This document shows, piece after piece, positions 5,363-27,360 of a DNA stretch of 64,000 nt. The DNA lies in assembly GCA_023055505.1 (NCBI GenBank), contig JALIRH010000006.1:27439105-27503104 (forward strand), given 5' to 3'. Every line of letters begins with the position of its first letter. Position 1 is the stretch's first letter. The DNA comes from Callipepla californica brunnescens (Eukaryota; Chordata; Aves; Galliformes; Odontophoridae). The notes beneath the pieces were generated by a model, which was not told where the DNA came from, searched no databases, and saw only the letters and a list, made by a program, of their open reading frames with translations. Made by a program: the position numbers and the translations under genes.

Positions 5363-5562
5363 TATATCCAGCTTGAAGACAAAATAAAATGTGAATTCTG
5401 CAGGAATTTCCATCTCATCCTTCGCACTAAGCTGACTAACCCTCCCTACAAGACAGAGCTGAAGACTCAGACCACCCTCATTATTTTCACTGTCACCAGG
5501 GTCAAGCTGGAAGAACAGCTGTTGACTGAGGTGGTGAGTGGCCTGACTTGGAAAACCAGAAG
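5363..5562 (+). pseudogene. DNAH11: DNAH11 exon remnant, AAA5-end segment, frameshifted
   Basis: After an acceptor AG at 5361-5362 the frame reads YIQLEDK...[15 protein letters not shown]...[18 protein letters not shown], the dynein segment usually written FRLILHTKLANPHYKPE...TLINFTVTRDGLEDQLL. After VVS the conserved AERPDLE continues only in another frame (PDLENQK). This fits a loss of about 7 bases near 5540. A donor GTAAAA follows at 5563. Apart from this frameshift the exon is open. Confidence 0.88.
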
Positions 5563-6808
5563 GTAAAACATGTATTTCAATCTTTCTGTTGCTCCTGAGA
5601 TTTCAATATGTGTGTTTCAACAGCTGTTCAGTAATTATTAGTAACTCAGACGTTAAAGAGATTTTAAGGGTCAGATACTATAAACTGTAGAAAGAGTTTC
5701 TATAGATTTCCTCAAATTGGTGTTCCCAGAGAGCTGTGCTTGACCTAAAGCTCTGCAAGAAATTAAATTCATTGTGATGTTGTTCCCACACATCTTTCTA
5801 CTGCTCAGTTTGCTCTGTGCATTGCCTTTAATTTACAGTACAGGATTAAAGCCCTCTGCAGTGCTTTGTGCTTCAATGATCTTAAGCCAGTAAGTGCAAA
5901 TAAATTTCATGCCAGTCCATAAAGAGGATATGATGGCACTGTCAAGACCTGGGGCACTTGGTTAATAAATCATGATTTATTCCTTCAAATATGCAGTTCT
6001 GTGGTTGTTGCAGTCATAACAAATATTCAGTAATTTACAAACAGAAATACTTGTATAAATAATTATAAAGGGGATATTGAGCAGATTGATCTATGAGCTA
6101 AAAAATAAAAAGCATACTAACAGATATGAAACGAATAATAGGAGTGCTTCCTATTTCTCTAACATATGTATCCAGTTAACTCATGCACTTCACAAACTTT
6201 ACCAACAAAAATAACTGCGTTTCTTTGTTGCTTCATGCAAGGGCAAGCTGGTTCAGAGAGTTTAAAGACCCATAAAAAAATGCTTGCAACCATGATGTGA
6301 AAACATCTGGCTATTTTACTCTACATTAGCAGATCGCACACCTCTACCACGTAGGATTTTGGTGTGAGGGTAAGACTGGGGAAATCCCAAGGAGGCCTGT
6401 CAAGCTGTTGCTCTTTTAGAGGGTCTATACAGCAGAGCAGATTACAATCATACTTCCCCAACCCTGCTTGCTGCCGAAGTGGGGTTCTTCAACCCTGAGC
6501 TACTCTTGCTTTTCTCAGCTGAGACAGAGATTACTGTTTGTCACCTCTAGCAATTTCCCAATCCTTTTGCATGGTCTGAGAAAGAAAGAGATTAAGAAAG
6601 AGCTGCAGTTTTATTCTGAGCTGACTGTGCTCTCCTTGACCATGACCTTGGCATTCTTGCTTTGGTGTCAAGGAAGCTCTCACTTTCAGAAATTAAATTA
6701 AATCAATGGTTGTCATTAAATGGAAAATACAGTGCACAAATTCTACAAAACAGTATTTTTAATTCTACTTTTTACTGCTAAATGCAGTGTTTTCCTTCTC
6801 TCTGCTAG

Positions 6809-6964
6809 TCAGTACTGATGAAGCAGAAGAACCTGTCTGAAATCAAGCTCAAACAGCTTGAGGACAACATGCTGTTCAGTCTATCAGCAGCCCAGAGCAC
6901 TTTTGTAGGCGACAGTGAACTTGTAGAGCAATTCAAGTCAACTGCAGGAGAAATACAGTGCAAG
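6809..6964 (+). pseudogene. DNAH11: DNAH11 exon remnant (LKQLED exon)
   Basis: Bounded by an acceptor TAG (6806-6808) and a donor GTAATC (6965). All 52 codons are open. It reads SVLMKQKNLSEIKLKQLED, then FSLSAAQSTFVGDSELVEQF, then KSTAGEIQCK. This matches the linker/coil after AAA5 (KQQNDFKITLKxLEDxLLxRLSAAEGNFLGD). About three codons seem to be missing between VEQF and KSTA. It joins the preceding remnant in phase 0. Confidence 0.85.
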
Positions 6965-7034
6965 GTAATCATTGCTGAACTGGTCTTAACAACTGGAATT
7001 CACCTGTAAAATGTGTATTATTAATTATTTTTAG

Positions 7035-7122
7035 CAAAATACTCCTATGAGACAGAAACATTCAAATTCCTGTCTGTCCAGCAAGTGCTGTCCACCCATA
7101 TGTTCACAGTTTCTTAGTTTTG
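7035..7122 (+). pseudogene. DNAH11: possible DNAH11 exon remnant (INEAREHYRP...HPMYQFSLK)
   Basis: An acceptor-like TTTTTAG and a donor GTAAGG bracket 88 bases. Read across several frames these resemble the expected exon: a PVCPAS piece aligned to RPVAARAS, and a HPYV/SQF piece aligned to HPMYQF. The middle (YFIMNDLSKI) appears deleted. It is in the correct place and order but strongly decayed. Confidence 0.45.
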
Positions 7123-10048
7123 GTAAGGAACTGTCACGTAATCATTATTTTTTTCCTTTTGATTAGGTTTTTGAGTTAGTACTTGTAAAATAATAATCAT
7201 CATGAAATTTGAACAAAAGTATTCATACATTTTTACAAGGTAACAGGCATGTTACTGAGGACAGTAGTCTCCCTAATATTTGTCCAAGCAGGAGGCTTCT
7301 TACCTTAAATATTTACTACTTTCTGAAATAGTTTTCTAGAGTACATCCATATTCTTTTTTCATGGATATAGAAATGTTTTGTTAATTGTGTGTAATAATC
7401 ACGGTGGATTAAAAAAACTGATGGGGCAGCTGTCATCCTATAGACAGCTAAAACCAAGGAAAATGAAGCTCAAAGTAATATGAACAGAGGGCATTACAGA
7501 CCAATTACCATCTCTTTACTTCATTAGTAATAACCTGGGCAGCATCAGCCCCATCTACCAGTACTCACTGAAGTTACACAATTCTCTCTCTTGATTTGGT
7601 TTCACATTGCAAGAAATAGAGTGCTGGGCCTCCAGCAGTGAAATCCAATGTATTAATTCTTATTTGCACCAGATGAATATGGTTACAATATTGTGAGTCT
7701 GAGAAAAGACAATGTTACATGACCTCCAGTTGGTTCACAACATACAAAGTACAGCGCCTCGTTGCTGGCTGCCTCCATTCTGATGAAGCTTTCTGACTGT
7801 GTTTCTCAAGCTTACCTGCCTTTTGTGCAGACATCCTGCAGCATAAGGGAGGAAGAGTTGACAGGCATTCTCTGTGAACAATCCATTGTGGCTAATCTTC
7901 CAAACTACCGATGCTATGAGAAATGGCTCAAAATTACTGGCTTTCTTTAGTGAGAGGGGTGTACCTGCTGAGTTAAACAGGGAAGAAGAGTGCTGCTGTT
8001 TGCGGCACTCGCTCCTGGATTGCTGAAAGTTTCCTCAAAATCTTCTTGGCAGAAGTGATTCAACTGTTAGTACCTCATGTTTTAGACTGCCTTGGACATC
8101 TCTTCTTAGAAGCCTATATCCATAAAGAAATTGATTAATCTAGCATGCAGGAAAGCAAACAGAATTCTGGAATATATTCAATTAAAGTGTGAAAACAACC
8201 AGAAGAAACCCTAGGAGAAATGGTGGAACCTTTTTTGATACACATTTAGTTTGTGTGCAAGAACTGTTACAGTGGCAGTACTTTTGCAGCTTACTTCTAC
8301 AGTCTTTTTTTCCATCAAAATAATACTGAATCCATCCCACTATCAAAGTAAAAAGCTTCTTGCCACCACCATCAAAAAAGCAACTCAGAAATGGCAAGTT
8401 TCCCAAAGGTTTGTGACAGCTTGCAGTATGAAGAGGGCCTGGAATGATGATGTGTGCATGACTTGTTCTTCTTTATTTTGGAACATAAAATGGATACATG
8501 AAGATCATTAGATGGAATTCAGAATTATTCACTTTTTTGTTATGTTCACAGAGCCTGAGGAAAATAATCCTGATATTGGTTAGCTCATTTTAAAATTCAG
8601 GTGAATTTAGCATTCAGCACATAAATGTACAACAACTTTATATTATGCAAAAATCTTTGACTGTCAGGTTGAGTTTGGTTTTCAAGGTGATTTTAACTGT
8701 AAAAGGTCAATTGTGTATGTGTGAAGAAATGGTTTAGGAAATATCTGTCAAAATCTTTTATAACAAATGTTTCAGAATACCATTCTATGTGCAGTAGATT
8801 TCAAACTAACGTTTGAAAAATGAGATGCAAATTCTTATGTCAGAGACTCAGAAAAATCAGCCATAGGAGTCCTTGTTGCTCTGAGCTCCCTACTCAATGA
8901 AACTTTGAGTGGAGAGTAGTTTAAGGCTGAAGTGGCTCTGAACCAAGTCTGATGGCCTTTTTCAATTTTGTACACTGTCAAGATTCTTCTAAGAAATAAA
9001 GAGGTAGAAGTGCTTGAATTGGATTTCCTTCTTTGATGCTGAGTTGAATGCACTTACAAGAGTCCTGTTGACTTCCTAAGTACTCAGTCATGAAGTGCCA
9101 TTAGAGTAGGTTGTGAAAATTGCTCTTCAGTTCTAAATCATTTTGTGTTATTTCTGGAGACGTGCTACAACTAGACAACCTCAGATAAAGTCATATATTC
9201 CATAGGAATTTGTGGTAGAAACAGCAATGCTTTCAAAGACTTGTCCTTGCTTTTTGAATGTATTTTTCCTCAGCCATTGTGTATTGAGATTTGTGAGGAA
9301 ATCCTGTTGTAATTTGTCCAGTCTTCTAGAAAGATACTGCTTATCTCCATACTGCTTCTTACTATATTAAATGTTCCATACAACATTGCCACCTTTGTAT
9401 AGATTTAAGAAGTAGGTAAGTAACTTACAAAACTGGGTGATTGACCAGAATTTGAAATTAACTCCTGTGACCATTCCCAAACAGTTCTGCTGGTGAGAGT
9501 TTACTAGTAAAGAGGTAGTTTGTTGAAATGTGAGTTGTGGTATATTTGAATATATGTCTTTGTGATTTCTTTTTTAAAATTCTGTATCCCTTCTTTGGAA
9601 TTCTGCTCTTCAACAAAGATTCAGTGGTGAATACTTATTCAAACTTACCTCAGTTACTTTCTTGTTGTGCTGTTTTAATCTTTTGATCCTAAGTGGTGGT
9701 TTCATAGACCTGAACCTTCACGCCACAGCGTCACTGTTCTTATCCATTTTCATGCTTTCTGAGAAAGCAGTATTTTGGTCCATGTGTTTATTGTGCCCAC
9801 TGCTCTGGCATTAGGAGAATGAAAACAGATCCATCTAATTCAAAAGCTGCCATTATCTGTCATGTGTTCTCTATCCAATTGAGAAACTGATCACCATCTG
9901 GAACCTCTTTTTGACAGAAGTTCACTTTCCTGACACTATCACTAATGAAATTGCTTAGGCCATCACTATCAGCTTCTCAAGTTAAAGAACAGTGTGTGCT
10001 TAAAGTCTACATTAGGGAACATTTTTGATTTAAGAACATATTTTCTGT
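7123..10048. other. no certain exon; several DNAH11 AAA6 exons missing or decayed
   Basis: Three or more exons covering the first part of AAA6 are expected here. A piece at about 9240-9310 (LLFEC, then IFPQPL) resembles GLFECDKLIF-AQL but is too decayed to call. A frame at 7762-7950 has no dynein similarity. The rest is AT-rich intron-like sequence. Confidence 0.4.
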
Positions 10049-10220
10049 ACATTCAGGAACTTTGTGGAGGACTTGCACAGTTCAAGGAATGTGGAAGGTA
10101 AATGAATGGACTTAGTAAAATCATACAAAGAAAGCAGTTCAACCACTCCTTTGTTTTTCCTTCCATCTCCAGGAGTGAACCCTTTTGAAGTCATGGAGAT
10201 CTAGGTAAGCTTCTTTTTTG
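10049..10220 (+). pseudogene. DNAH11: DNAH11 exon remnant, AAA6 (RNFVEE...FFILSPGVDP)
   Basis: The frame from 10049 reads TFRNFVED, then MDLVKSYKESSSTT, then PLFFLPSPGVNPFEVMEI. These align with LRNFVEEKLG...YEESSPxTPIFFILSPGVDPLKDVE in axonemal dyneins. In-frame stops are TGA at 10103-10105 and TAG at 10202-10204; after the second, GKLL continues in a shifted frame. The exact ends are uncertain, because the sequence upstream of 10049 decays gradually. Confidence 0.85.
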
Positions 10221-10296
10221 TTTCTGATGCAAGGATCATTCAGCCACACTTAACTAAAGAAAAAATGATCTCCCATCAGAAACAAAGCATACAGAG

Positions 10297-10368
10297 CTAT
10301 ATATGTAGACATACCAATATAAGATATTTATATATATATGTTCGTATGTATATACCCATACATACATG
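10297..10368. repeat. TA-rich simple repeat
   Basis: A degenerate alternating TA/TG/CA stretch (tatatatatatg, catacatacat). Ordinary microsatellite-like DNA. Confidence 0.7.
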
Positions 10369-11276
10369 ACTGGTGTGTGAGTGTATTTTTATTAAACAGA
10401 TCAAAGCCTTTTAGAACAATCTGGAATTAAAATGGAGTATGTGTTACCATGGAAAAGTTGGCCAGGGTTTATTTTCAGCAGAAGATGCAAGTTCTAAATT
10501 TCTTCCACCCCCACCATATTCATGGTAAATTGGATGGATGAAAAGTGTAAGGCTGTAAGTGCTACAGTGTGAAGAAATGTTTAGACTGAGCATTCCTCTG
10601 CTTGGCATAATGCAGGTTTCTTTTGTACTGTTTTCTACCTTTTGACTAGATGAGGGCCAGAGGGCAATTTTCTCCATGCTCATGTAATCTTGTGCCCCCT
10701 GTGACTAAATAATGGTCATTATACAAACTATACTCAATTGTATAGAGTTCTGTCGCTTTATACTTAGGATTACTATTCCCTACAGACAATAGTGAGAATA
10801 CCAGGTTAATACAGCTGTGACCTCACTGTGCTCAATTTAAGCTCAGGCCTCACAAGGTGAGAGACTTGTGCATTTACCCACTGAACCAATCAGTTAAAAA
10901 ACTGATGTGGTATCTACCACATGTTGCTCCCTTTTTTATAAGGGAATTGCTCTGTACCCCCTGTAAGAGCTTCTAAAGCTCAGTAACAATGCTGAGCATC
11001 TATCAAAATGTCAAAAGGTTCATTATCTTAAAATCAAGGGAACAGATTTCTGCAGGCTTTTTCTAATACCAGCAATAAGGCCACTGTTGAGAGCTCGCAA
11101 TTTTGCTTGCTGAAATTGTAAGGGTTTAGTGAAGTGCTTCAGAAGAAGTAATATGCATTGCACAAGTGATAGTGAAATTAATGGGGGCATTATCTTTCTT
11201 TTTCCTTTCTGCTCTGCTAATTTTCCTATCTCCTCCCCTTCTGTCATTCATTCTCACCCTACTATTTATTTTACAG

Positions 11277-11396
11277 GCAAAAAGCTTCCACTACATACTC
11301 TAGAAGATTTCATATCTCTTTAAGACAAGGACAGGAGATGGTCATGGAGGAGGACTTGATAAGGCTGTCAAGCATGGCCATTGGCTTATTCTCCAA
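11277..11396 (+). pseudogene. DNAH11: DNAH11 exon remnant (NVSLGQGQE...GHWVILQ)
   Basis: A pyrimidine-rich acceptor (ending TTTTACAG at 11276) and a donor GTGAGT at 11397 bracket 120 bases. One frame gives HISLRQGQEMVMEEDL, matching NVSLGQGQEVVAENAL. The other end reads KHGHWLILQ, matching EKGHWVILQ, in a different frame. At least two frameshifts are therefore needed, although both splice sites look intact. Confidence 0.88.
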
Positions 11397-12036
11397 GTGA
11401 GTGTTAAATGGCCTCTCTGAAGGCAACTGTCCACTCAGTTGGAGGGATGTTCCCGGGTTACAAACAAAATATGCAGGAGGTTACTGCAAAAGTTTTAAAC
11501 AGCTGATAATCTTGTTCTTTTTTGATCGTGATTGTAACAGGATAAACATTACCTTAATAGACTGGATACTCTAGTTTTCTTAATGTTACTCTTGCCCTCC
11601 CAGGAGGAGCAGGAGAGAGAACTTAGAAAGCCTCTGGTGAGTAAGTAGGGCTGTTCTCAGGAATATTCATTCCACATGTAATTAGGAACTCCAATTCAAT
11701 GAACTGTGATGGAGACCTTAATAAAGTAGGTCTGGCTCACTTATGGGAAGTTGTTTAATTACTGCTTAAGTATTGCTCATCCAAGATAGCAACAACAGCT
11801 CTGATCAGCTCTGGAGTGCTGCAAATTCTGCTGCTGACAAAAAAGAAAAAAAAAGAAAAAAAAAACACCCATGCCACACCCCTGCAAACAAAGACTTCTG
11901 CTCTAATGACAGTGTTGACAGGAGCATTGCAACTGTCAGTGCTACTGAAAGAAGGTAGAAGTAGGAGGAGAGGCAACAGGCATAAAACAGAACACATAAA
12001 GTTCCATCTAAACTGAACTAAGGAAAATCTTCTGTA

Positions 12037-12203
12037 CTGTGAGGCAGAAAAGCACTGAAGAATCCTCCTTGAAGATATTCAAAAATCTCCTGAACATGAG
12101 CCTGGGCAACCTGCTCTAGGAGAACTGCCTGAGCAGTGTGTTGGACCAGATGGCCTCCAGAAGTCCCTTCTATCCCCAGCCATTCTGTGATTCTGAGATT
12201 CTC
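12037..12203 (+). repeat. CR1 LINE 3' fragment
   Basis: It contains CR1-style wording (CTTGAAGATATTCAAAAATC, GAGCCTGGGCAACCTGCTCT, GACCAGATGGCCTCCAGAAG) and ends with a degenerate ATTCTGTG/ATTCTGAG repeat. Plus orientation, short and old. Confidence 0.85.
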
Positions 12204-13260
12204 TCTCTCCATTTCATGCTAATGTAACTATTCCTTTGTCCTGAAATCATATGAGAAATGCATATCCTAGCACTGACATTTAGAAGGTGATTACACGTGA
12301 TTTTCTCCTCAGCTGGATTTAAACTCAGCAACACACATTCAGCTGTCCACTGAGTTGTCAACAAGAAATGAGGAAACGCATTGGACTCTGGGTTGACTAC
12401 TGACTGAAATAATATCACCAAAAGGCCTTGACATACCAGTCAGTCTGCAAACACATGCAAACTGACCTCTTCGTTCACATCGCAGCTGAAAGAATTCTTT
12501 AACCAGACTTCATAGGAGTAAGCTACTTCAGATGGCATGAAAATGCCCTTGCTTTTTCTATTGAAAGTACAGAAGTGCCATGAGGGCAAGAACAGTCGAT
12601 TTTCAGATGTATTTCAGAGTTTTTCTGGGGACTAAACAAGAAAATGGGAGACGGTAGAGATCCTAAACAAACATTATTGCATATCTGAGGTCATAGGAAT
12701 AAATGGGAAATAAATATATCACCTTGCACTTTATAAAGAACTTCACCTGCCTGTCAATGACATACCAATTTCTTAGTATATTGAGAATATTAAAGATTCT
12801 GAAGTAGTATGACACATTTTTAATGTAATCTGTGGGAAAAGCTGTAAACATTTCCCTTTGTCTACCACTTCTTCAGTCATGCTCCTGGTATGTATTGGAC
12901 ATGTTTTATCTTAGTCTCCATGTTCTTCAGGGAATTTAAATTACATTCAAGTGCTCTGCCACTTTACACTTATATTTATATATGAGTAAAGCCATCGTAT
13001 CACTTACTTAAACCAAAGTTTATAATAATTTTGTTAGGTTCAAAATCAAGGCCTGGTACTTCAGTGACTCTGCTACACTTGCAACAGTTATAAAGATATA
13101 ACAGCAGGTAATAATATTCAAGTTTATTCTCTGCATTATCAATTTATTTAATAATAAAATGATACTTATTTTTTTCTCTGTAAACCCACAAAAGCAATCT
13201 CTTAAGCATAACAGATGTATTTATTAGCTCACAATAGACCTATTGGCTGTTTTCCAGCAG

Positions 13261-13488
13261 AATATTAATGTGGTAGCCAAGTGACTAGGAACTTTGGAAA
13301 AGCTCCTTGAGCAATACAGTAAAGAAAGTCACTATGATTTCCATGTCTTCACTAGTGCTGAACCAGCTCCAGCCCCAGAAGAGCACGTCATTCTTCAAGG
13401 AATACTTGAAGACTGGATTCAAATTACCAGAGGAGCTCCTACAGGGATACTAGCTAATCTACATGTAGCCCTCTACAGTTTTGACCAG
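13261..13488 (+). pseudogene. DNAH11: DNAH11 exon remnant (SAEPAPxPEEH...PTGMLANLHAALYNFDQ)
   Basis: This is the best preserved remnant: 76 codons between an acceptor CAG (13258-13260) and a donor GTAAAA (13489). It reads NINVVAK, stop, [12 protein letters not shown], then [15 protein letters not shown], then [17 protein letters not shown]. The single break is TGA at 13282-13284, where the family has the tryptophan of [13 protein letters not shown]. Several normally invariant positions have also changed (for example KITNEPPTG to QITRGAPTG). Confidence 0.93.
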
Positions 13489-14274
13489 GTAAAAGCACGA
13501 TGGACTGTTTTCATTCATGTTTTATTTCCTCCTTCCTCTGTGGGGAGAATTGATGAGTAATGCGTAGCAGCTCAGAACTTTGTTTTTTTGGGGTTTTTTT
13601 TGATGGCTTTAGTTTACAAAGAAAATGACAGCCATGGGCTGCTGTCTTCCATGTACCACCTCTGAGTTTTCCATCAATACTAGGAGGAAAGTTGTGGTAA
13701 TAGTAAATACACACATATTATTAAATATCTAGGTACAGATGCTCATTAAGGCAGAAAGAAGGTATGTTTATTGTACAAGATGTACCTAAAGGTGCAGTCT
13801 TATGAAAACATTTGGCAATGCTCTTCCATTTGATGGTGCCCACTAACTTTACTCAGCACTTAATTATTGCTAGATTAGAACATAATCATTCTCCCACAAA
13901 GTGAATTTGTGCATCTAGATATTCTGGCATTGCTTCAGTACTCTGTGTATGAATTCTTGTAGTTAGGCATAAGGAAGTGAACTTATGAGCAAGGGTTACA
14001 TAATGCTCACTGTCTTGTCTTCTGTTCTTTTCCTGTGTGAGCACTGCTTGATTCGTGGAAGAAGTAGGCAAAGGAAGAGGTAGGAATGTAGAGGACAGAA
14101 GCATCCCTGGATGGGCTCTGCCTGCTTCCTTCCAAGACCCTGGTTTCCTTCTTCTGAGGAACTTGTAGACACATCTGGCATGAGTCAGCTCTGGAGGTAC
14201 TGGAGTAGCAAGTTTTATGTCAGCAAATCATACCATGATAAAAGCAAACAAAATTATTTGTTTTTTTTCCACCT

Positions 14275-14440
14275 AGGAATGCATTCAGGCTTCTCAGGAC
14301 AGCAGTCATGGAAGCAAGCTGTCAGAGTTCAAGAAGCATTTAGAGAATGTGCTCAGAAATATGGGTTGAAATCTGGGTGGTCCTGTGTGAAGCCAGGTGT
14401 TGAACCCCATTATTCTTGTCATCCTTCCAACCAATGAGAT
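14275..14440 (+). repeat. CR1-like 3' fragment
   Basis: It contains the wording of another CR1 3' end (TTCAAGAAGCATTTAGAGAA, GGGTGGTCCTGTGTGAAGCC) followed by a decayed TTCCAAC-type ending. Plus orientation. The subfamily cannot be named without a library search. Confidence 0.65.
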
Positions 14441-15486
14441 TTTTTAATACTATTATCATGCCTTTATGTGTGCATAGGATACACAAAATCAAAACTTGGA
14501 TGCAAGCAAGAGTTACTTCTAAAGGAAACTATCAACGAGTACCTAAAAAAGCATTAAGGGAGCTGTGTCACAGCAGCTCTGGCTACAAAGGCATCAAAGA
14601 TAGCAGCTGAAAGAATCTTGGGAGAAGGGGAGAATGGCTATGGCTTTGTGACTAAACAGCTTTTAATGGAAAGCTTAAAGAAAAGACTGGACAAAAATTT
14701 CAATGAAGGCAACCCATATGCATTATTGTCCCGCTTCACACTATTTTCAGTTCAAGAAGTATATATGTTTGTGTTTTAATTAGCTTATTTCTAAGATTGG
14801 TGTTTTGGAAACTCTCTGTCCTTCCTCTCCCTCCGCCTTATTCTGAGCCATGGGTATTTGAAACTTACTGCAAATTCTTGTGCAGACATAATCTTTAATA
14901 CATCTCTTGTCAAGGTATTTTAATTTTTTTGAGGAAAAAATATTATTGAGAAAGTCAAACTACACCATACTCAGGTGGAATAAATTTCATGTTTTGTTTC
15001 TTTAGGATAGAAGCTTGTCTTGTATTTTTAATGGTTAAACTCAACATTCTGACTTAAGCACAGGTTTTTGTTTTGTTTTGTCATACAGAATCTTCACTTT
15101 TGCTCAGATTTTGCAACCAGCTGTTCAGTTAACAGTGACTTCTGTACTTATGTCAGCCAAGAGTTTATCCCTCTGAAGTTTCTTCCACACATCTGTTTTT
15201 ACAGGTATCAAAAGTCATATTTGTTATATCTGTTTCTTCTTAAACTAAAAGATAGAACTGTCAGGGAGCCAAGAATTGATTTCTGCAATTGTTTATGGGA
15301 AAATGCCGAAATACCTCCATAGTTTTAAAACTAGCTAGAACCTTTCACAGAATCTCACTTTGCTAAGAATATTTACCAATTCTACAAACAAGTAAAAGCA
15401 TAAAAATTGTGATTAAATTTTACTTTCGAACATGGCTTTTTCAGAAATGGTGTGAAATCTGAAGGAACAGTTAAAGTATGCTTTTC

Positions 15487-15950: not shown

Positions 15951-16305
15951 ATGTCTAACTTGCAAATTTTCTACCTGGAAAAAAGTTTGTGGGTGGTTTA
16001 TGCAAAGAAACTATAATGGTTTTTATTTTCAAGTCCTACTTAAACTCCCTACAATTATTGCTTTCTGTTGTGCAACAGTTGTAATTCCTAAGGGACACTT
16101 GTCAACAAAAAGGTAACCATCAACAATTTTGCTTCTGGGAAATAACGCCACAACTATGCTTCACAGTTGCTCATCTTTGTTTCTCTCTCTCTTCTGAACC
16201 CCAGGCCTGTGTGCAGTCCCTTTCAGCAGCTGAAGCAGACACAGCTATCAGTAACACTGCCAGGCGTTAAGTGGATAAATGTATTCCTTTTTTTCCCTTT
16301 GGCAG

Positions 16306-16518
16306 GATACCCTTGAACTGTGTGGCAGAGAACGGGAATTTAAGAGCATCCTATTTTCTCTTCGTTATTTTCACACTCGTGTTGCCAGCAGACTCATTTG
16401 GCCTTCCAGGCTGCAATCAAAGAAAAGACACCCATTCGGTACTAGAGATCTCGCTGTTTGCATCAGTGTCCCCTGAAACTATTTAGACACTCTCACAGAG
16501 GTCTGACACAGTGGTCAG
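16306..16518 (+). pseudogene. DNAH11: DNAH11 exon remnant (DTLEICSKEQEFK...LYNYLE)
   Basis: The acceptor is TTTGGCAG (16305) and the donor GTAAGC (16519). The 213 bases equal the 71 codons expected from the mammalian protein as I recall it. It reads DTLELCGREREFKSILFSLR, then YFHTRVASR. It slips frame for FGLPGCNQ (expected FGPQGWxR), returns for HPFGTRDLAVCISV, and meets TGA at 16474-16476 in place of the tyrosine of VLYNYLE. A second in-frame TGA lies at 16504-16506. Confidence 0.93.
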
Positions 16519-16779
16519 GTAAGCACACACCAAGGTTAGTTTGACCCAGTCAGCTGTTCATATTGAATAAAGGGGATAGTTTTTCTCTGAAAAACTATCT
16601 TTCTCTGTTATTTAAATACCTGGCATGATGTGGTTCTGTTGCTGAGCATGAAAATAAATCAGATCAAAGCTTTTTTCTTTTTTTTTTTTTTTCCTAGTGG
16701 TGGATGTCTGAACTTTGTAATATAGGTCAAACCAGTTCCACATGAGTAGCTAAGGGGGAAAAAAATGCCCTTCATTATG

Positions 16780-17720: not shown

Positions 17721-17805
17721 GTTAGTGATTCATTACACTTCAGCTTTATCAGCATTTTTAACACAGATATTGTAGAGAGAAGAGTGAAAAGTTTTTAAAA
17801 ATGTA

Positions 17806-17856
17806 ACTTCATATGCATATACACATGTGCTTATGTGTGTGCATACATATATATCA
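17806..17856. repeat. ATAC/TGTG simple repeat
   Basis: A degenerate stretch of alternating purine-pyrimidine steps (catatgcatatacacatgtg, catacatatatat). It lies in a former intron. Confidence 0.6.
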
Positions 17857-20114
17857 CCATAGCTCCTGGTTTGCTACCCTTTGAGGACAACGTTGTCTAA
17901 TAGATGTAGGGATTGACCAGTGTAGCAGAAATGCTAAGTCAGGGCTGAAACCAGTGACTGAGCATCTGGTGGGAAGGCAGGGACAACCCAGGGGAGTTCA
18001 GGTGCAAGTGATGCACCTGAATGACTGGAAGGGGTGCAGCCAGGATCCACCCCTTTCCATACCTCATTTAAGAGTTGGCAGTGTAGGCAAGGGTATTTCA
18101 CTGGAGATTCTTGTCTACCTGAAGACTTCCAAAAGAAAGCAGATTTTCTTCTTTTGTTTCTGTGGCTGTGGCTTCTATACTGGGGTTTGTTCTCATTTGC
18201 TGCAGCCTAGGATTATGCTACCCTGCTATAATTGCTCTGCTTTCCACCACATTATAGCATAACATCTGAAAATAATAAACTAGGAAATATTAGCTAGCCC
18301 ATCAGCTACTGCAGAGTGTCCCATCTCCATCACCACTGGCATCAGTTAGTGCTGTGAATGAATATTTAACATTCTTGCATCTCAGTTGGGCTTAACACGC
18401 TTTCCCATTGGAAAGATGAATTCCACCATACTCACCTCTGACAGCTGAGGTGAAGTGCAGGATGCCTGATCTTACATCAGTGTCCCACTCTTTCCCTCCC
18501 CTGTCTTGACCCCATATACACATCCATGAAGTTGTTTGGTGTTGAAGGGGATTGGGCTCTGGCCTCTCTGTAACCATCCAGTGAGCAATGGCTCAGGCCT
18601 TTCTGAACAGAAACAACTGCAGATATGTAAGCCCAAAGAATTTCTAATACAAAGTCCTGACTTTTCTCACAGTATTAAAAATGTCCCTCTTATATCATGC
18701 ACCTCGATTATCCCCATGTAATCAATATTTCTAAGGGTGTGTGACTGAATGAGCCTGTATGGAGTTAGAATACTGATATACTTTTCCGAAAGACAAAGGG
18801 AAACCATCATTCCTTGAGATAAATATATGAAATTTAAGAAGTACTTTTAAATTTCTATTGCTAACAGTCAGGAGTGAGGTTATTTTCACTGCAAAGGTAT
18901 TCCATTTTAAGCCAAATTTGTTGGTATTTTTCACAAAAACTTTCTGCTTAGGCTTCATATCACCAAGGTGTGGCATTGCTCATTACATCCAGGTGGCCTT
19001 TTGTGGTTTTTTTTCTTCATTTCTTCCTTTTTTTTTCCCCTCCATTTTCTTCCAACCAATTTAAAAGAAAGATGGATTCAAGTCTCATATATTCCAATTG
19101 AAATAAAGTTGCAGCAAGCATACTGGAGTAGCTGCAGTTATTTTACGTGTTCTGTTCTGTCACATCATGTAATATTTAAAGCCTATAATTAAGTTTTTAC
19201 TTGAACTGTTGGGAGGAAAATACTGCCCCGCAGGGCATAAAGGTTCCTGTCTGGAAAGGCTTCATCACGAACTGGCATATTTTGCAAACCAAAGGGTAGC
19301 AAAAAAGAAGCTTCAAACTCTGTGAAGCCAAATAAAGCAGAGAGACAGTAGTTCCTTGAATAAAACGTGTTCCTGCTGTTAATCACAAACTATAACAGCG
19401 ACATTATGGATAGAGTTCTACAATAAACATAAGCATTATGTGATGTGGCAGTAATGGGATTAATATTAATTCAATTTTTACTGAAGTTTTTCAATACATC
19501 CTGAATTCAAATGAAGTAGAATTTCAGTTACTTGGTGTTTCCTAGTGAGGCGATATAAAAGGCTGCAATCAGATACAAGTTTTTTTTATTTCTTCTTTAA
19601 GAAAGGCACAGTGGGTTACCTTCCTCTCACTCGTGAGGATTATGTTTTTAAAGACCTGCATGAGAAAATACATTCACTTGTTAATGAGTTCTCTTATATT
19701 ATGCAGTGTTTTGAAAATGTACTTTTCTCCTTAAAGCTTTTTATGAGGAATAAGTCAGAAAATATGATGTTAGGCTCTGATGATACTGCTTTACAGCATC
19801 GGACAACTTTAGTCATAAACTTGATATTATTGCTCAGGTACTTATAGGTACCTCTTGCTGGACTGGGGAAAAAAGAAAAAAGAAAAAAGAAAGCCAGGAA
19901 ATCCGTGCTTCAGTGTAGTTATTTTCAAAACAAAAACAACAAACTCCAGTGAGAATATTTAACTATAAAGTTTTTTGGAAGGAAGTACCTTTTGGAATCC
20001 TTTTTGGAAGGATTTTCTTCTGTTTCTCATAATAGCATTTATTACGAGCAGATTTGATTTATTCTTTTGCAAACTGATGTTGTTTCATCTAACGATCTTG
20101 AGTAGATTCTATAG
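17857..20114. other. former DNAH11 intron, no gene seen
   Basis: Several short open frames occur (for example 17954-18262 and 19545-19847), but none resembles a known protein and none is flanked by matching splice signals in a gene context. Confidence 0.4.
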
Positions 20115-20216
20115 GACAATTTGGGTTATCTCTTCGGTGGCCACACCACCAATGCCTGAGAGTGCAGGCTCTGCTTCATATGTTTGCCAGAATTCATCAC
20201 CCTGCCGGTGTTAATA
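20115..20216 (+). pseudogene. DNAH11: DNAH11 exon remnant ([17 protein letters not shown])
   Basis: The frame reads LGYLFGGHTTNA, stop, ECRLCFICLPEFI. This aligns with [31 protein letters not shown]. About five codons (EIMYG) are deleted. TGA at 20157-20159 replaces the tryptophan of DDWD. The boundaries are approximate. Confidence 0.8.
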
Positions 20217-22208
20217 ACTTTCAATATACCTAAACCTTTTGAATGTGTATATGAAGTTTGTTAAACTTGAGGTAAATTCATCTTTCAGGACTGGAGCCTT
20301 TAGAGTACTCCACAAGCTTTCTTGTCTTTGTGGTCCCACCATACCAAAACTTTGTCTGTCTGTTGTGGAATAAATTACCTGACTTGAAATGATCACAGTG
20401 ATTCATCAGCAGAAGATTTTATCTGCAAGGGTTTGTGACTTGGCACATTGCTTCTTTAAATACTTTTGCAAGCATTTACTTGGCAACTTGGATTCAGTGT
20501 TTTGTAACACTGCCCAGTATAGCCAGCCTAGCCACTTTATGGTTCAGTGCATTTAGCTGTTTCCCTATTTTAATTATTTTGTTTGAAGGTGTAACTATTT
20601 AGAAAAGTCTGGACAGACGTAAGGATATGCCTTTTATTAAGCTGAACTTTAGTTGATAGATATCCCAGATACAGCATACCAGAGTGGCACAATCCTCAAC
20701 ACTTAGTTAGATTTAATGGCTTATCTGACTCTGGATAAACAATAGCATGGAAATATTATACATTTGCTTCCATTTTCCTGTTCCCAAAACAGGGAGAACA
20801 GAATGCAAGAGCGTGCATCATTTTTCATGCCTCTCTCACCCACCTGTTTCTGTAGCTGCAGCTTTGTCAGATCACCACTGGCTAACGCATACTGTGTGAT
20901 TTGAACTTTGCCGTTGAGTTTTGGACCCAGACAACAGAGCATACGGAGCACCCGTGAGTCTGAGGTGCAAAACTGCCAAATCTGCTTCTAGTCAGAAGCA
21001 AAGGGCAGACGTTTTAAGGATAAAAAAAGAAAGTGTTGCTTTTAGTTCTAAAAGCCCTGCACAGGAAATACTTTCATCTGTTTCCATATATGAACATTCA
21101 AATAGGTAGATCTATATAAAGTGTGAATGGATATACAGATAGAAACCAGCCCTGGCTGATTTCCCTCTGCTGCTCTTCTAGTCATTTCAAAGAATTTACT
21201 GCACACAATTTGCTGAAATCACCCAAGAGCTTTTTCAAGTGCCCTTTCCAGACTTGTTATTTTTCTTTCTCCAAAGGTAAAAAGCCTTTTTGGAAGGAAA
21301 AAAAATAAAAAAATTAGTAAGTTATGTAGGAGTAGGCCATTTGCAGAGCCTGACTAGCTTAGGGAAAGTGCACTTTTCACCCTTTGCTCTGCCGTAAGGT
21401 TCTGGGCAAAATGAGCTTGCTCGCATCTCCCCATCCCTAACGAGTAGGTTTTCATATGTCAAAGAGCCACATGCGGATTAACGCAATTGGAAGGAACTGT
21501 TCTGAAGAAGAGGCCCAAGAGGAAGTTGCCATGGAGATGAAGAGGCTAAACACTACTGTACTTGTGACCTCCACCAGGCTGATTTCTCCAAATGACAGCG
21601 GAGGTCGCGGGGGCACACCGGGGAGCTGGTTCTGCCTGGCCCTGCTCTGCATCCAGCCCCTGGGTGAATAAAGAATGACTGCTTCCCGTTTAGGCAGTCC
21701 ATTAACCTTCACAAGCCTGAACTTTCATTCGAGTAATTGTAAAATAAGTATAGGTGGTGAAACCTGAGGAGAATCACTGCTATTTGTGTGGCCTTTGGAA
21801 AGTTTAGGGACCCAACCCTGAGTGAGGATCTGCTGCTGTTTCAAGGAGTGAGATGATATCTTTCCACGTTCTCTGCTGTAATTGGAAAATGTTACAAGCA
21901 CTGGCGAAAACAGAAACTCGTGCAATGGCTGATGGTCAAATGAAAGTAAACAGGACAGATACACATTTCCATTCTGTGTTCACTGGGGATATTGCCTTGC
22001 CTTTTATCCACCGGTGTTGCTGCTGAATTCCTTTATCTGTAAACCCTTTTGCAAGGTGTGTTAGAATTAAGTAGTACAGGTCAGCTTTGCTGTACCTCAT
22101 CTGAGGTACAACACAGGGACACAAGGGTGGGGGGTCCCTGCTTGGAGCTCAGTGGGCCACAGCTCCAGCTGCATGCCCAGCTCTGGGAGTGCCAGCACAG
22201 AGAGGTAA
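20217..22208. other. former intron; an unassigned CpG-richer patch at 21450-21680
   Basis: An open frame at 21456-21671 (71 codons) lies in a slightly GC- and CpG-richer patch. It has no recognisable domain and its opposite strand is equally open. I do not call it a gene. The DNAH11 exons encoding APGFAAPP...LPPESPALYGLH were not found. Confidence 0.35.
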
Positions 22209-22350
22209 GTGCCGCAGCCTGATCACATTGATCTTTTGCTTGAGGTGAATAACAGAGCTCTTTTCAACACCCAGGCACTGCTTCAAAGTGCTGTCTTAAG
22301 GCACAGACTATTGTGGATGAGGTTAGTAGTGCCGGCTCCAATGCAGGTAA
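22209..22350 (+). pseudogene. DNAH11: possible DNAH11 exon remnant ([11 protein letters not shown]...)
   Basis: A frame reading QPDHIDLLLEVNNRALFNTQ and ending before a GTAAAT (22348) weakly resembles [21 protein letters not shown]. It lies in the correct interval between neighbouring exon remnants. The similarity is modest and could be chance. Confidence 0.35.
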
Positions 22351-23139
22351 ATGGCTGGTTGGAGAGCCAAGATTACTTCAGAAATAAGTGCTTCCTGGTG
22401 TTATTTTGAGCAGCAGCTTGTTGTCAACTGTTCTAAATGCCAAAAGCCTTTAAACTTTATTGTGATTTTGTGGAGAGGACCCTGAAGAAAATGGCTCCTG
22501 TGAAAAGCAGCACTTACAGTCAGAAATAGTTCACAGCAGCAATAACTTGCAAGTCTAGCCTAAATCTCAGACAGGTCTGTGTCAAGTTCAGATAAACTCT
22601 GAATCCAGTCCTTACAGCACAGAAGCTGGGAGACAGGAAAACAAGTATGACTGCTAAAGCTTTTACCCTCCTCTGTCATCAGTCAGAGGGCAGGACCCTG
22701 TAGGGGACCTGCCTGTTCTATCCGAACAGCATGCTTAATAGCAGCTGGTTCAATATTTTGCTGCTTGATAACTTTGTCTTCCCTCCTTATGAAAATCACC
22801 AGAGTCCATCCCGTGCAGGACAAAGCTCTAAGACAAAACCTCATACAAGACAGCTGTGTTTGGAGAGGTGTAATGGAGTAGCATGCTTTTTCCTTTTTAG
22901 TCCAGCTCCTGGGTGTCAACAGCCAGGCAGAAAAGAAGGGACACTGTCACATAAAGAAATGTCCTAAAAGGCGAACTTGTACAGAGAATGGATTGGGATC
23001 ACTACTTTTGACAAGCCAAGTATTGCTCAAATATCATCACTTCGGTTTCTCTTCAGATCATATAAATCTTTCAGCCCCTATTGAATTTTTCTGTGCAGAG
23101 GAACAACCACAAGTGTCTTGGAATTTTCTGAGGCTCCAC

Positions 23140-24842
23140 ATTGGTGAAATTTTTTAGGCTGAGCTACTAAATGAGTTTTTTGCCTTGGTCTTCACTGGCA
23201 GACAGAATTCTTGTACTTCTCATGTCCCTGAAGCTCACATCCCTGGGCCTCTAGGCAAGAACTGGGGGAGTAAATACACCCCCCTGCTGTAAGGGCAAAG
23301 CAAGTCACTTCATGAGACTGGATGTATATACAAGGGGGACCAGATGACATGAATCCCAGGTCCTAAAGGAGCTGGCTGATGTGGCTGCTGAGCTGCTATC
23401 CATCACATTTGAAAAGCTGTGTCTGTCAGGTGAATCCTCCTGGGACTGGAAAAAAGAAAATGTTGCTCCCATTTGCAGGAAAGTGAGGAAGGATGACACA
23501 GGGAATTACAGGCAGTGAGCCTCACCTCTGTGCCTGGGAAGATCATGGAACTGACCCTCTAGAAGACATGCTAAGGCACATGGTGGATCCGAGACAACCA
23601 GCATAGCTTTACCAAGGGAAGGTTGTGCCTGACCAATCTGATGGCCTTCTGTGATGGAGTGACGGCATCAGTGGACAAAGGGAAGGTGAATGATGTCATC
23701 TACCTGGACTTCTGCAAAGCCTTTAACACTGTCCTGCACCACATCCTTATGTCTAAATTGAGGAGATACAGATTTGAAGGGTGGACTAATTCAATGGATA
23801 AGAAATTGATTGGAAGGCCGTAGACAGAGGGTTGTGTTGAGGGGCCTATGTCCAGGCAGAGGCTGGTGACGAGCACTGTCCTTCAGGGGGGTCCGTCTTG
23901 GGACTGGTGTTCTTCAACATTGTCATCAATGACAGACTTGAGTACACGCTCAGCAAATTTGCATATGACACCAAGCTGAGTAGTGCAGCTGATGCCTTAG
24001 AAGGAAGGGAAGCTATCCAGAGGGACTACGACAAACTTGAAAAGTGGGCCTGTGTGAACCTCAAGAGGTTCAACATATCCAAGTGCGACGTTTTGCACTT
24101 GGGCTGGAGTAATCCCAGATATGTGTAAAGACTGGGAGAAGAACTCCTTGAGTAGCCCTGCAGAGAAGGACCTGGGTGTCCTGGTGGATGAAAATCTGAA
24201 CATGAGGCATCAGTGCACTCTTGCTGCTCAGAAGGCCAATGGTATCCTGGGCTCCATCATCAGAAGAGGGGTAGTCAGCAGGGACAGGGAAGTGACTGTC
24301 CCTCTCTACTCTGCCCCTGTGAGGCCCCATCTGGAGTACTTTATCCATGTCTGGGGCCCCCCATACAGGAAAGACATAAAGAGAGAGGTTCCAGAGAAGG
24401 GCAATGAAGATGATCAGAGTTCTGGAGCACCTCTCCTATGAAGACAGACTGAGGAAGCTGGACTTCTTCAATCTGGAGAAGTCTGCAAGATTTCATTGCA
24501 GTCTTTCAGTATTTAAAAGATTATAAAAAGGAGGAGAATCAAGCTTTTAGATGGGTAGGTAATGATAGGACAAGGGGAAATGGTTTTAAGCTGAAGGAGG
24601 GAACGTTCAGGTTGGTTGTCAGGAGGAAGTTCTTTACAGAGAGTGGTGAGGTGCTGAACAGGCTGCTCGCAGAGGTTGCAGATGCTTCATCCCTGGACAT
24701 GCTCAAGACCAGGTTGGATGGGGTCCTGAGCAACCTGGTCTAGTACCAGATCTGGAGGTTGGTATCCCTGCCTGTGGCAGATGGATTGGAACTTCGATGT
24801 TCCTTGAGGTCTCTTCCAACTCAAGCTATTCTATGATTCCAT
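23140..24842 (+). mobile_element. CR1 LINE, 5'-truncated, reverse transcriptase broken
   Basis: This is the longest mobile element in the window. Translated pieces follow the CR1 ORF2 reverse transcriptase in order: [54 protein letters not shown] (family FADDTKL), [27 protein letters not shown]. Pieces lie in different frames, with stops between them. The 3' end finishes in CTATTCTATGATTCC at about 24842, directly against DNAH11 coding sequence. It cannot move. Confidence 0.93.
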
Positions 24843-25030
24843 AAAGTTATGAATATTGTGGATGATATTCTGGAAATGCTTCCTGAGTTTAACATGGCAG
24901 AAATCATGCTAAATAATATTTCCAGGAGCCCCTTTGCCCCTGCTTGCCTTTAGGAGTAAGAGGATAAACCTCCTTCTTTTAAAGACCCAAGTCTCTTGAA
25001 CAGCTGTACCTTGGTCTCAAGGAAACTGTC
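24843..25030 (+). pseudogene. DNAH11: DNAH11 exon remnant ([23 protein letters not shown])
   Basis: Immediately after the CR1 end the frame reads [20 protein letters not shown], then [16 protein letters not shown]. This matches [39 protein letters not shown] with one glutamate codon missing. A TAG stands where the family has CAG (FQE) and a TAA where it has the cysteine of ECER. After a frameshift it continues as RINLLLLK, then SLEQLYLGLKE, matching RMNILIREI and SLEQLDLSLKG. The exon's 5' part is cut off by the CR1. Confidence 0.9.
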
Positions 25031-25129
25031 TCTTTTATTAATAGCGTTGTTGCTGTTTCTTCCCTTTGAAATGAAAGAATAGCTGCTCTTTATGATGGCA
25101 GTATGGTTTTTATTGTTCTCCAAACAAAG

Positions 25130-25275
25130 GGGGAGTCAATGCTTTTTCCTTGCATGGAAGAGCTGCAATCCACTCTTCTATGATTCTGTGCCACACACAT
25201 GGACTACACTAGCTCACCCACCCACCCACAGCCTTCTCCACTGGTTATTATGGCTAACTGCAAACTGCATCTAGT
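25130..25275 (+). pseudogene. DNAH11: DNAH11 exon remnant (SPAxEAL...[15 protein letters not shown])
   Basis: It reads GESMLFPCMEELQS, then after a one-base frame change near 25175 continues FYDSVPHTWTTLAHPPTHS, then LLHWL. The family has KGELALSPAVEALQ...[25 protein letters not shown]. Ordinary missense decay is heavy. A stop (TAG) ends the frame at about 25275. Confidence 0.85.
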
Positions 25276-25359
25276 AGCATGCAGTTATTCCAGTGAAGTC
25301 CTATTCAATTTATTTTTTGTCTATAACTTGCGTTAATGCGAGTTATTTTTACTTTTAAG

Positions 25360-25434
25360 TGCTTGATGTCTGGACACAGGACCTTGGGCTGCCAGCATCA
25401 GGGTGACTTTCTGGCTTGCAGTTCTTTCTGACAG
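25360..25434 (+). pseudogene. DNAH11: DNAH11 exon remnant ([25 protein letters not shown])
   Basis: An acceptor TTTTAAG and a donor GTAAGC (25435) bracket 75 bases. They read LDVWTQDLGLPASG, stop, LSGLQFFLT. TGA at 25404-25406 replaces the tryptophan of VVWLSGFF, and about three codons (FNP) are lost. It ends in phase 1 (ACA G), which fits the next remnant. Confidence 0.88.
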
Positions 25435-26443
25435 GTAAGCAGTTACAGTTAGGAGGAATCAGGCACATTTTTTCAATGCCAGATACCTGATTCAGCCTTT
25501 GCTCTTAGCTGTGTTTGTGCTGCTGCTTGGAGTTTTAAGTGAAGTTTAAACAAAACATAAGCTGAACAGAAAAGTTAAGAAATGACAAAAAAAAAAAGAG
25601 ACAGAAAAACTAAGACTGAAACATCTTGGCTGTAATCATGTGCTATGGATGAACAACACTTTTCTCCAGTAGCAAATCTCTAAAGGGACTCCTCTTTAAT
25701 GGGGGCTCCTAGCAGAGTTGTCTCATCTTCAAAATCCTATAGCCCAAGTTCTTTTGCTATATATACATAAACTCACTGTTATCACAATAATTGCAAACAG
25801 CACACTTCAAATTCTGTGTGGCTATCAGTGGCACCCACTCAGATAACTCTGCTATCCAGGCTGAAAGGTGACCAGGCTGCCATCATTCCCCTGAGATGGG
25901 CAGTGAGGGCCTGAGGGACGTTGCAGCCCAGTGAAATATCTCCCCTTATACACAGAGGCAGAAGAAAGTTGGGGCATGAGGGCTGGTGGGCTGACAGCAG
26001 CTGCTTCTCCCTGGGATGAGGTCCTCAAACAGTGCTTTGTGTCACACTGCCCTCCAAACATTCAGCTCAGAGCTCCTTTTCCTGTCAAGAGATGGGGGGA
26101 TGTAAGGACCATCTGAAAGTTAAAAAGTATTTTAACACTGGCTTGTTCTGGGACTCAACTAGAGAGAAGCAGTATGCCAGACTGTAGACAGCAAGGCAGT
26201 CTTGCTCCCTTGACAATAAGCTGGAGGTTTGTTTCTTCTGTAGGATGCAGAACTTCATGTTTCTAAACAACTGCATTAATGCTGGTTTTTGCGTTACTGG
26301 CTAAAGGGAGAAAAAAGAAACTGATAAAAAAAAAATCAGTCAATCTTAGGCTTGTACACAACAGGCCTGAGAGGGCCACATAAACAGTTCTGACATCAAA
26401 ATACTGTTCAGATATTGAACTAATGTGATTGCTATTTTAAAAG
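25435..26443. other. former DNAH11 intron, no gene seen
   Basis: Open frames near 25852-26116 occur on both strands without recognisable similarity or matching splice signals. A short A-run lies near 25589. Confidence 0.35.
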
Positions 26444-26592
26444 CTGTTACGCAGAGCATGACACACAGGAGCAACTTGCCTTTGACTAAGATGTGCTTGA
26501 CTGGAGATGGTACCAAAGAAGACTGGTCTTAGAACGTACAGCAGCAGGCTTTTCATGGAAGAAAAGAAATAAATGTAAATTGCTTGATCTCA
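26444..26592 (+). pseudogene. DNAH11: DNAH11 exon remnant ([17 protein letters not shown]...GLFMEGARW)
   Basis: It begins CT GTT ACG CAG AGC ATG, completing the alanine codon split by the previous intron. It reads AVTQSMTHRSNLPLTKMCLT, then GDGTKEDWS, then stop. The family has [35 protein letters not shown]. Further on RLFMEEKK matches GLFMEGAR and is followed by TAA in place of the tryptophan codon. Deletions remove HPPREGA and part of VTKK. Confidence 0.88.
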
Positions 26593-27159
26593 GTAAGCTA
26601 TTACAGGGACTGAAGTTCCCTTCTTTAAGTTCCACAAGTGCTGTGGTCCTGTGAAGGGTGCCAAGGAATTTCAGGAATAGTAATGGATTGCTGGCATTGG
26701 CCTGTTGCAACTTCATATTTCATGCCACATTGATGTCCTAATCACTATCTATAGTGCAAGCATTTACATTATCGTTAACTGCAACTAAATGTGGCTGACG
26801 CTGTAGAAAAGGAGCAGTTTTGATCTAGTCCAAAGACTTATTAGATTTCAGTCTCTGATACTGATCACCTACAGATTTACTGCTGCTCTTACCAGATATG
26901 TTGGATCAAGCCCTCTATTCAATCTGGATTTGGCTTCAGGTTTTTGAGGAATTTTTTTCTAACAACTAATTGCAAAAAACATCATCTTTTCTTCCCTCTG
27001 GTCACAAAGTTATCACTCTACTAAGCTGATCTAACTAAATTCTTTTTGTTTGCCAGAAGGCAGTACATACTTGTTGTTGGGGAAACATAACAAGAAACAA
27101 GGAAATACTTGAGAATCCCTGTATTAGCATTGAGGTAAAATGGTGCAGCCAGACATGAG

Positions 27160-27360
27160 ATATGTATGTGCAGCAAGTATTGTTTCCATCCGTGTTTCCA
27201 ACGAGTCAATTACTGCAGTAGATGTACTGCTGCTCAAGATCTCCCTAATGGAACCAGTGTTCACCTGTAGAGCTCCAACGTATTTTTGAACGATTTACAG
27301 AGGATAATCAAATACTGTACCTTGCACTTCTGACACTGTATTTTCCTAATAGTGTAGTGC
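27160..27360 (+). pseudogene. DNAH11: DNAH11 last coding exon remnant (RGPTYVWTF...LAGVALLL)
   Basis: It contains EPVFTCRAPTYF, stop, TI, matching ECPVYKTxxRGPTYVWTF, with TGA at 27287-27289 in place of the tryptophan codon. The tail GTACCTTGCACTTCTGACAC looks like a decayed form of the VLAGVALL coding sequence. The start is uncertain. This places the end of the former gene about 2 kb from the CDCA7L stop codon on the other strand. Confidence 0.75.

What the first reader, a model, noticed from the sequence alone, without database searches (positions are those of the whole stretch)
5363..27360. DNAH11 (left-right dynein) is a unitary pseudogene in this bird
Twelve clear and two doubtful exon remnants of one gene lie in order on the plus strand, next to CDCA7L as in mammals. 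At least nine show clear disabling changes. Stops: TGA 13282, TGA 16474 and 16504, TGA 20157, TGA 25404, TGA 27287, TGA 10103 and TAG 10202, plus TAG and TAA in the 24.9-kb exon. Frameshifts lie in the exons at 5363, 11277, 16306, 24843 and 25130. Several stops are the same TGG to TGA change at invariant tryptophans. So many independent hits cannot be sequencing errors. Retained order and splice sites rule out a retrocopy. Seen: the frames and breaks. Known: the dynein motifs. Inferred: the orthology and the loss.
Basis: partly seen in the sequence, partly recalled or inferred. Interest (0 to 1): 0.88.

Follow-up and report, generated by a model that had tools for sequence, protein, structure and literature searches.

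The report
Dead left-right dynein gene in quail
In this quail the gene for DNAH11, the dynein motor that sets left and right in mouse embryos, is a ruin full of stop signals between two neighbour genes, and it looks dead or decaying in nearly every other bird that could be checked, but not in crocodiles, turtles, lizards or mammals.

Summary
The finding holds and is larger than stated. The window carries the last exons of DNAH11, collinear on the + strand; 12 of 14 aligned exon remnants have a stop or frame break. The held genome shows the whole locus: about 114 kb, 52 match clusters, 32 with a stop, between SP-family and CDCA7-family genes. A genome-wide search returns two other close relatives, DNAH9 and DNAH17, open where sampled: a unitary pseudogene. 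The tree puts it in the bird DNAH11 clade, crocodile next. Lysozyme fits a New World quail. All nine long bird DNAH11 models returned are labelled LOW QUALITY and change like the dead quail gene; 20 of 20 non-bird DNAH11 tested are constrained. One bird fragment, Balaeniceps, is open, so losses were probably repeated. Correction: the stop at 27287 is not in DNAH11; the last exon is 27894-28115. Loss of cilia-driven left-right flow alone does not explain it: crocodile, lizards, pig and whale keep DNAH11. Ten paper searches gave no report of it.

The parts
5360..5562 (+). DNAH11 exon remnant, croc residues 3522-3590; frame break near 5540
6809..6979 (+). DNAH11 exon remnant, croc 3591-3650; no stop or frame break
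7435..7621 (+). DNAH11 exon remnant, croc about 3650-3701; TAG 7441 and frame break near 7507-7514
8974..9105 (+). DNAH11 exon remnant, croc 3749-3790; TGA 9034, 9040, 9091
10034..10203 (+). DNAH11 exon remnant, croc 3855-3902 and a little beyond; TGA 10103; TAG 10202 at exon end ambiguous
11276..11396 (+). DNAH11 exon remnant, croc about 3911-3947; frame break near 11347, also read through by the Callipepla squamata gene model P0009
13257..13488 (+). DNAH11 exon remnant, ending at croc 4023; TGA 13282 at a Trp present in 26 of 26 non-bird rows
16303..16518 (+). DNAH11 exon remnant, croc 4023-4088 and a little beyond; TGA 16474, TGA 16504, frame breaks 16396 and 16421
20106..20216 (+). DNAH11 exon remnant, croc about 4091-4126; 15-base loss or frame break and TGA 20157
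23500..24842 (+). CR1-type retroelement (ends approximate); its 3' end, judged by eye from its terminal repeat, abuts the next exon remnant
   Evidence: weak RVT_1 match below the curated cut-off; similar copies of part of it elsewhere in the window; junction read
24843..24962 (+). DNAH11 exon remnant, from croc 4206; TAG 24951, TAA 24957, frame break
25118..25235 (+). DNAH11 exon remnant, croc 4265-4304; frame break 25172
25362..25436 (+). DNAH11 exon remnant, croc 4317-4343; TGA 25404
26422..26523 (+). DNAH11 exon remnant, croc 4337-4370; no stop or frame break
32208..32396 (-). exon with the zf-4CXXC_R1 zinc finger of a CDCA7-family gene (CDCA7L by position), tail to tail with DNAH11
   Evidence: Pfam E 1e-18; solved CDCA7 zinc fingers E 6.5e-26

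Best explanation
The locus is the DNAH11 gene (axonemal outer-arm dynein heavy chain, left-right dynein) of a bird that fits a New World quail, decayed in place into a unitary pseudogene. Shown: it lies between an SP-family and a CDCA7-family gene, keeps exon order over about 114 kb, carries stops, frame breaks and missing exons (among them the AAA1 nucleotide-binding exon), and a genome-wide search finds no intact copy, while DNAH9 and DNAH17 are open where sampled. Shown by proxy: DNAH11 changes as if unconstrained in nine other birds. Inferred: birds could shed DNAH11 because their left-right organizer no longer uses ciliary flow and because DNAH9-type outer arms cover the remaining motile cilia; the gene was then inactivated in several bird lineages.
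For: Remnants and lesions in the window. Whole locus: 52 clusters, 32 with a stop, 65 stop positions, four of them in introns by my exon map and some at alignment edges; 2376 of 4472 crocodile residues matched, Walker-A exon not found. SP-family zinc fingers upstream with open frames, CDCA7-family finger downstream. Tree: window in the bird DNAH11 clade 100/100, with goose 98/94, crocodile next 97/92, DNAH9/17 apart 100/100. Genome search: close relatives outside C6 are only DNAH9 and DNAH17, whose flagged stops lie outside the exons in the pieces checked. Shared frameshift in Callipepla squamata P0009. Nine of nine long bird DNAH11 models returned are LOW QUALITY; unique-change ratios 0.73-0.96 in these nine against 0.12-0.36 in 20 of 20 turtles, squamates and mammals; AAA1 P-loop altered in nine of nine. 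The quail itself 0.78-0.83, bird DNAH9 0-0.30 in 7 of 7. In the quail 301 of 881 invariant positions are changed.
Against: No reads, RNA or protein data. DNA of other birds could not be fetched, so their loss rests on the LOW QUALITY label, which also marks a few non-birds (Erpetoichthys, Gastrophryne), and on substitution patterns. Balaeniceps keeps an open 576-residue fragment with a ratio of 0.42. No palaeognath, chicken or songbird DNAH11 entry was seen in the listed rows (120 of 1760). The explanation by loss of ciliary flow is incomplete: crocodile, squamates, pig and whale have long DNAH11 entries without that label.
Confidence: 0.96

Rival explanations
1. Sequencing or assembly errors make an intact gene look broken.
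For: None found in the window, which has no N; the 230-kb region examined holds 590 N.
Against: Stops in 32 of 52 clusters plus missing exons; neighbours and paralogues open in the same assembly where sampled; a Callipepla squamata gene model reads through the same frameshift, 39 of 39 residues identical across it.
Confidence: 0.01
2. The locus is a dead duplicate and a working DNAH11 lies elsewhere in the genome.
For: The assembly could be incomplete; the genome search scored 48 of 113 candidates and used only the C-terminal 951 residues (a second piece did not complete).
Against: The best matches elsewhere are DNAH9 (92% to duck DNAH9) and DNAH17 (76% to camel DNAH17); this locus has the neighbours expected of DNAH11 (human order recalled).
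Confidence: 0.02
3. The remnants belong to DNAH9 or DNAH17, or to a further DNAH11-like paralogue seen in Anolis and Crocodylus.
For: All are close; solved-structure searches gave DNAH9 and DNAH17 as best matches, no DNAH11 being listed.
Against: Tree; DNAH9 and DNAH17 sit elsewhere; identity 65% to crocodile DNAH11 against 48-54% to DNAH9, DNAH17 and the extra paralogue, over fewer shared columns and with window residues placed by the crocodile DNAH11 alignment.
Confidence: 0.01
4. One single loss in the ancestor of all living birds explains every bird.
For: Every long bird entry returned is LOW QUALITY, and the stem branch of the bird clade (0.11) is longer than the crocodile branch (0.069).
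Against: The nine Neoaves share replacements at only 26 of 1554 columns invariant elsewhere, fewer than crocodile (34 of 1588) or mammals (51 of 1767), though more than turtles (7 of 1722) or squamates (15 of 1748); the Balaeniceps fragment is open with ratio 0.42. If the gene was still constrained in the ancestor of Neoaves, the quail loss is separate.
Confidence: 0.2

Closest known systems
STK33 unitary pseudogene of neognath birds (PMC4509753, abstract and outline seen)
   Same: A gene conserved across vertebrate classes that survives in many birds only as remnants with deleted exons, indels and stops.
   Different: STK33 loss was reported as one event at the palaeognath-neognath split, from 28 neognaths, with working palaeognath genes; for DNAH11 the pattern here suggests repeated losses and palaeognaths are untested.
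Left-right genes lost in animals without motile organizer cilia (MMP21, DAND5: passages in PMC5872349 and PMC10126504; the wider set with CIROP is recalled)
   Same: Loss in a lineage whose left-right organizer is thought to lack ciliary flow.
   Different: DNAH11 is kept in crocodile, squamates, pig and whale, so its loss does not follow that pattern.
Mouse iv / Dnah11 mutation (passages in PMC4292827)
   Same: Loss of function of the same gene.
   Different: There nodal cilia are immotile and laterality markers are randomised; in birds the loss is fixed, which fits a flow-free mechanism (chick passages).

Membership tests
DNAH11 orthologue | Groups with DNAH11, not DNAH9 or DNAH17 | tested here: met
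   bird DNAH11 clade 100/100 inside DNAH11, DNAH9/17 rows separate 100/100
DNAH11 orthologue | Lies between an SP-family and a CDCA7-family gene (human order SP4-DNAH11-CDCA7L recalled) | tested here: met
   SP-type fingers at C6:27339778-27341106 (query typed from recall; SP4 not told from other SP genes); CDCA7-family finger (CDCA7L not told from CDCA7)
Unitary pseudogene | Disabling changes in the coding exons | tested here: met
   12 of 14 remnants; 32 of 52 clusters with a stop
Unitary pseudogene | Introns and collinear exon order kept (not a retrocopy) | tested here: met
   46 of 46 clusters with crocodile residues ascend over about 114 kb; BLAST's linked E-values favour collinear weak pieces
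Unitary pseudogene | No functional copy in the genome | tested here: met
   within an assembly of 321 contigs and a search that scored 48 of 113 candidates
Unitary pseudogene | No protein product | not testable with these tools
   no RNA or protein data
Processed retrocopy | Intronless copy | tested here: not met
Functional dynein heavy chain | AAA1 Walker-A motif present | tested here: not met
   crocodile residues 1841-1937 have no match in the locus; a looser search between the flanking exons gave only chance-level matches
Loss shared by all birds | A lesion common to landfowl and Neoaves | not tested
   no DNA of other birds could be fetched

The most novel reading that the evidence does not exclude
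No living neognath bird keeps a fully constrained left-right dynein: DNAH11 was still under constraint at about the first Neoaves and was then inactivated several times over, separately and anciently in landfowl and waterfowl, with a few lineages such as the shoebill only now losing it, while DNAH9 took over its share of the outer dynein arms.
Probability: 0.55. Interest if true: 0.75.

Novelty: new member of a known kind. Interest (0 to 1): 0.62.

Why it matters
DNAH11 is the gene of the classic mouse situs mutant and a human ciliopathy gene. Its decay in birds would be genetic evidence that birds do not rely on this dynein to set left and right, and it makes a question testable: what outer arms without DNAH11 can do in airway, ventricle and sperm. 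It also bears on the recalled, not seen, report that a chick left-right dynein is expressed at Hensen's node (Essner 2002; a passage cites that paper only for monociliated structures in chicken); that probe may have seen a paralogue or a decaying transcript.

Tried and rejected
Rejected as lesions: stops at 25080, 25272, 25275 and 25356, counted, which fall outside the exons; frame breaks at alignment ends (8960, 10199, 11288, 13244, 24988). The C-terminal control rows for turtles and squamates are circular (their own rows define the invariant columns) and are not used; the controls leave the own group out. In that call crocodile and five other rows served as background and were not tested themselves. 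A date from the Trp/Met codons (29 of 48 kept, about 0.17 changes per base) was not turned into years because the neutral rate would be recalled; it uses matched stretches only, so it is a lower bound. Met counts for the other birds (0.02-0.12 per base, 12-19 sites each) are too few to rank them. The quail and goose branches are long (0.35 and 0.39), but Falco is longer (0.44), and gene-model errors or faster mutation could lengthen them. Paper searches gave no report of DNAH11 loss in birds; the library lacks most subscription papers. Passages of PMC3149648 had nothing to the point. A DOI for a California quail genome paper was not held.
Full report
What is there. Translated comparison of the window with DNAH11 proteins finds exon remnants in order on the + strand from 5360 to 28115. 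A frameshift-aware alignment to crocodile DNAH11 of 14 regions that I chose gives 11 in-frame stops (7441, 9034, 9040, 9091, 10103, 13282, 16474, 20157, 24951, 25404, 27960) and internal frame breaks in seven of them, eight if the loss in the remnant at 20106 is read as a frame break; 12 of 14 have at least one lesion. Nothing was found in the window for crocodile residues about 3702-3735, 3791-3854, 4127-4205 and 4371-4392, so some exons are gone or unrecognisable. A CR1-type element ends, as I judge by eye, where the remnant at 24843 begins; parts of it recur elsewhere in the window.

The whole gene. The genome that holds the window is searchable: 1.085 Gb in 321 contigs, window at C6:27439105-27503104. 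I took the 200 kb upstream and compared it, joined to the first 30 kb of the window, with five DNAH11 proteins. Counting only plus-strand matches right of offset 100000 at E 0.01 or better, 253 matches fall into 52 clusters from C6:27353291 to the last exon; six clusters match only bird models; the other 46 ascend along the crocodile protein without exception; 32 of 52 hold at least one stop, 65 positions in all, four of them outside my exons and some at alignment edges. One minus-strand match on the 230 kb reaches that limit, far upstream. BLAST's linked E-values favour collinear weak pieces. 2376 of 4472 crocodile residues are matched; the exon with the AAA1 Walker-A motif is not found. Upstream, zinc fingers of the SP type are open and 95-100% identical to an SP stretch typed from recall; downstream on the minus strand is a CDCA7-family zinc finger. 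SP4-DNAH11-CDCA7L is the human order (recalled).

Orthology. On 563 residues placed from the window by the crocodile alignment, identity is 65% to crocodile DNAH11, 58-67% to eleven bird DNAH11 rows, 57% and 53% to the rough Accipiter and Falco models, 51-54% to DNAH9 and DNAH17 rows and 48-49% to the extra paralogue, over 275 to 554 shared columns. A maximum-likelihood tree of 33 rows puts the window with the goose fragment (98/94), inside a bird DNAH11 clade (100/100), crocodile next (97/92), then turtles, squamates, mammals and frog; DNAH9 and DNAH17 rows are apart (100/100). Two rows named DNAH17 in the database (Lates, Oreochromis) group with DNAH9.

Unitary. A genome-wide search with the crocodile C-terminal 951 residues gives 52 matches, 48 of 113 candidates scored. 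The close ones outside C6 are two loci on C27. Sampled stretches fit DNAH9 (92% to duck DNAH9, no stop in the pieces) and DNAH17 (76% to camel DNAH17). Six C27 rows carry stops; in the DNAH17 stretch the stops seen against two references lie just before an exon start, and the two flagged DNAH9 exons are open. Only C-terminal exons were looked at, so 'intact' is not shown for the whole paralogues. The remaining matches, on C2, C3, C10, C20, C21 and C46, are at most 52% identical. A second query did not complete.

Which bird. The lysozyme exons give a protein with the Ser40, Val55 and Thr91 of bobwhite quail lysozyme but Arg68 and His121. A Callipepla squamata gene model, P0009, is the same locus: 8 of 277 residues differ, and it reads on through the frameshift of the remnant at 11276 with 39 of 39 residues identical. 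A Callipepla species, perhaps California quail, is likely; the species name is inference.

Other birds. Three protein searches returned DNAH11-like proteins of 16 birds. Nine are long models of 2826-5027 residues (Spheniscus, Ciconia, Sarcoramphus, Morus, Phoenicopterus, Theristicus, Pluvialis, Aegotheles, Cariama; nine orders by recall), all nine named LOW QUALITY PROTEIN; seven are fragments (Balaeniceps, Anser, Otus, Strix, Falco, Accipiter, Callipepla). Theristicus, Otus and Callipepla were not in the tree. One search listed 120 of 1760 hits. For each species I compared the rate of changes unique to it at columns invariant outside its group with that at variable columns: 0.73-0.96 in nine of nine birds, 0.12-0.36 in 20 of 20 turtles, squamates and mammals. 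The quail, surely dead, gives 0.78-0.83, which calibrates the measure; Anser, Strix, Otus, Falco and Accipiter 0.53-1.09; Balaeniceps 0.42 with an open frame; bird DNAH9 0-0.30 in seven of seven. The P-loop motif of AAA1 is altered in nine of nine birds, a second in five of eight, a third in seven of nine (AAA2 and AAA4 by recall). Columns replaced in common by the nine birds, 26 of 1554, are fewer than in crocodile (34 of 1588) or mammals (51 of 1767) but more than in turtles (7 of 1722) or squamates (15 of 1748); the stem branch of the bird clade is longish. I read this as constraint up to about the ancestor of these Neoaves, with some slackening possible.

How it came about. Mouse DNAH11 drives nodal cilia (passages); chick Hensen's node cilia are described as likely immotile and the node as lacking a cavity (passages). 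That removes one need. It does not suffice: crocodile, squamates, pig and whale have long DNAH11 entries although reptiles and pig are said to lack ciliated organizers (passages), and the chameleon still expresses Dnah11 in otic vesicle and kidney (passages). So birds must also have lost the need in other motile cilia; replacement by DNAH9, constrained in birds, is the likeliest step and is inferred.

Known or new. Unitary pseudogenes in birds are a known kind (STK33). Ten paper searches gave no account of DNAH11 loss in birds; database labels already hint at it.

Noticed in passing
window 5842-5967: A stretch between two remnants matches residues 3093-3134 of the penguin DNAH11 model (64.7 bits) but no crocodile residue: either conserved intron sequence read as exon in the penguin model or a shared repeat.
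   Followed up: no
proteins P0049 (Anolis) and P0054 (Crocodylus): Two entries named DNAH11 form their own clade (100/100) outside the tetrapod DNAH11 clade: a further reptile paralogue, gappy and perhaps decaying in crocodile, which also has a long DNAH11 (P0139).
   Followed up: partly
protein P0007 (Balaeniceps rex): A bird fragment with an open frame over 576 residues and an intermediate constraint ratio of 0.42.
   Followed up: partly
window 47549-48692: G+C-rich stretch with long open frames on both strands, probably the CpG island at the start of the CDCA7L-type gene.
   Followed up: no
L028, G000:C27:5445001-5452000: The DNAH17 locus is strikingly compact: about 950 C-terminal residues within about 6.5 kb, against more than 60 kb for DNAH9 on the same contig.
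   Followed up: no
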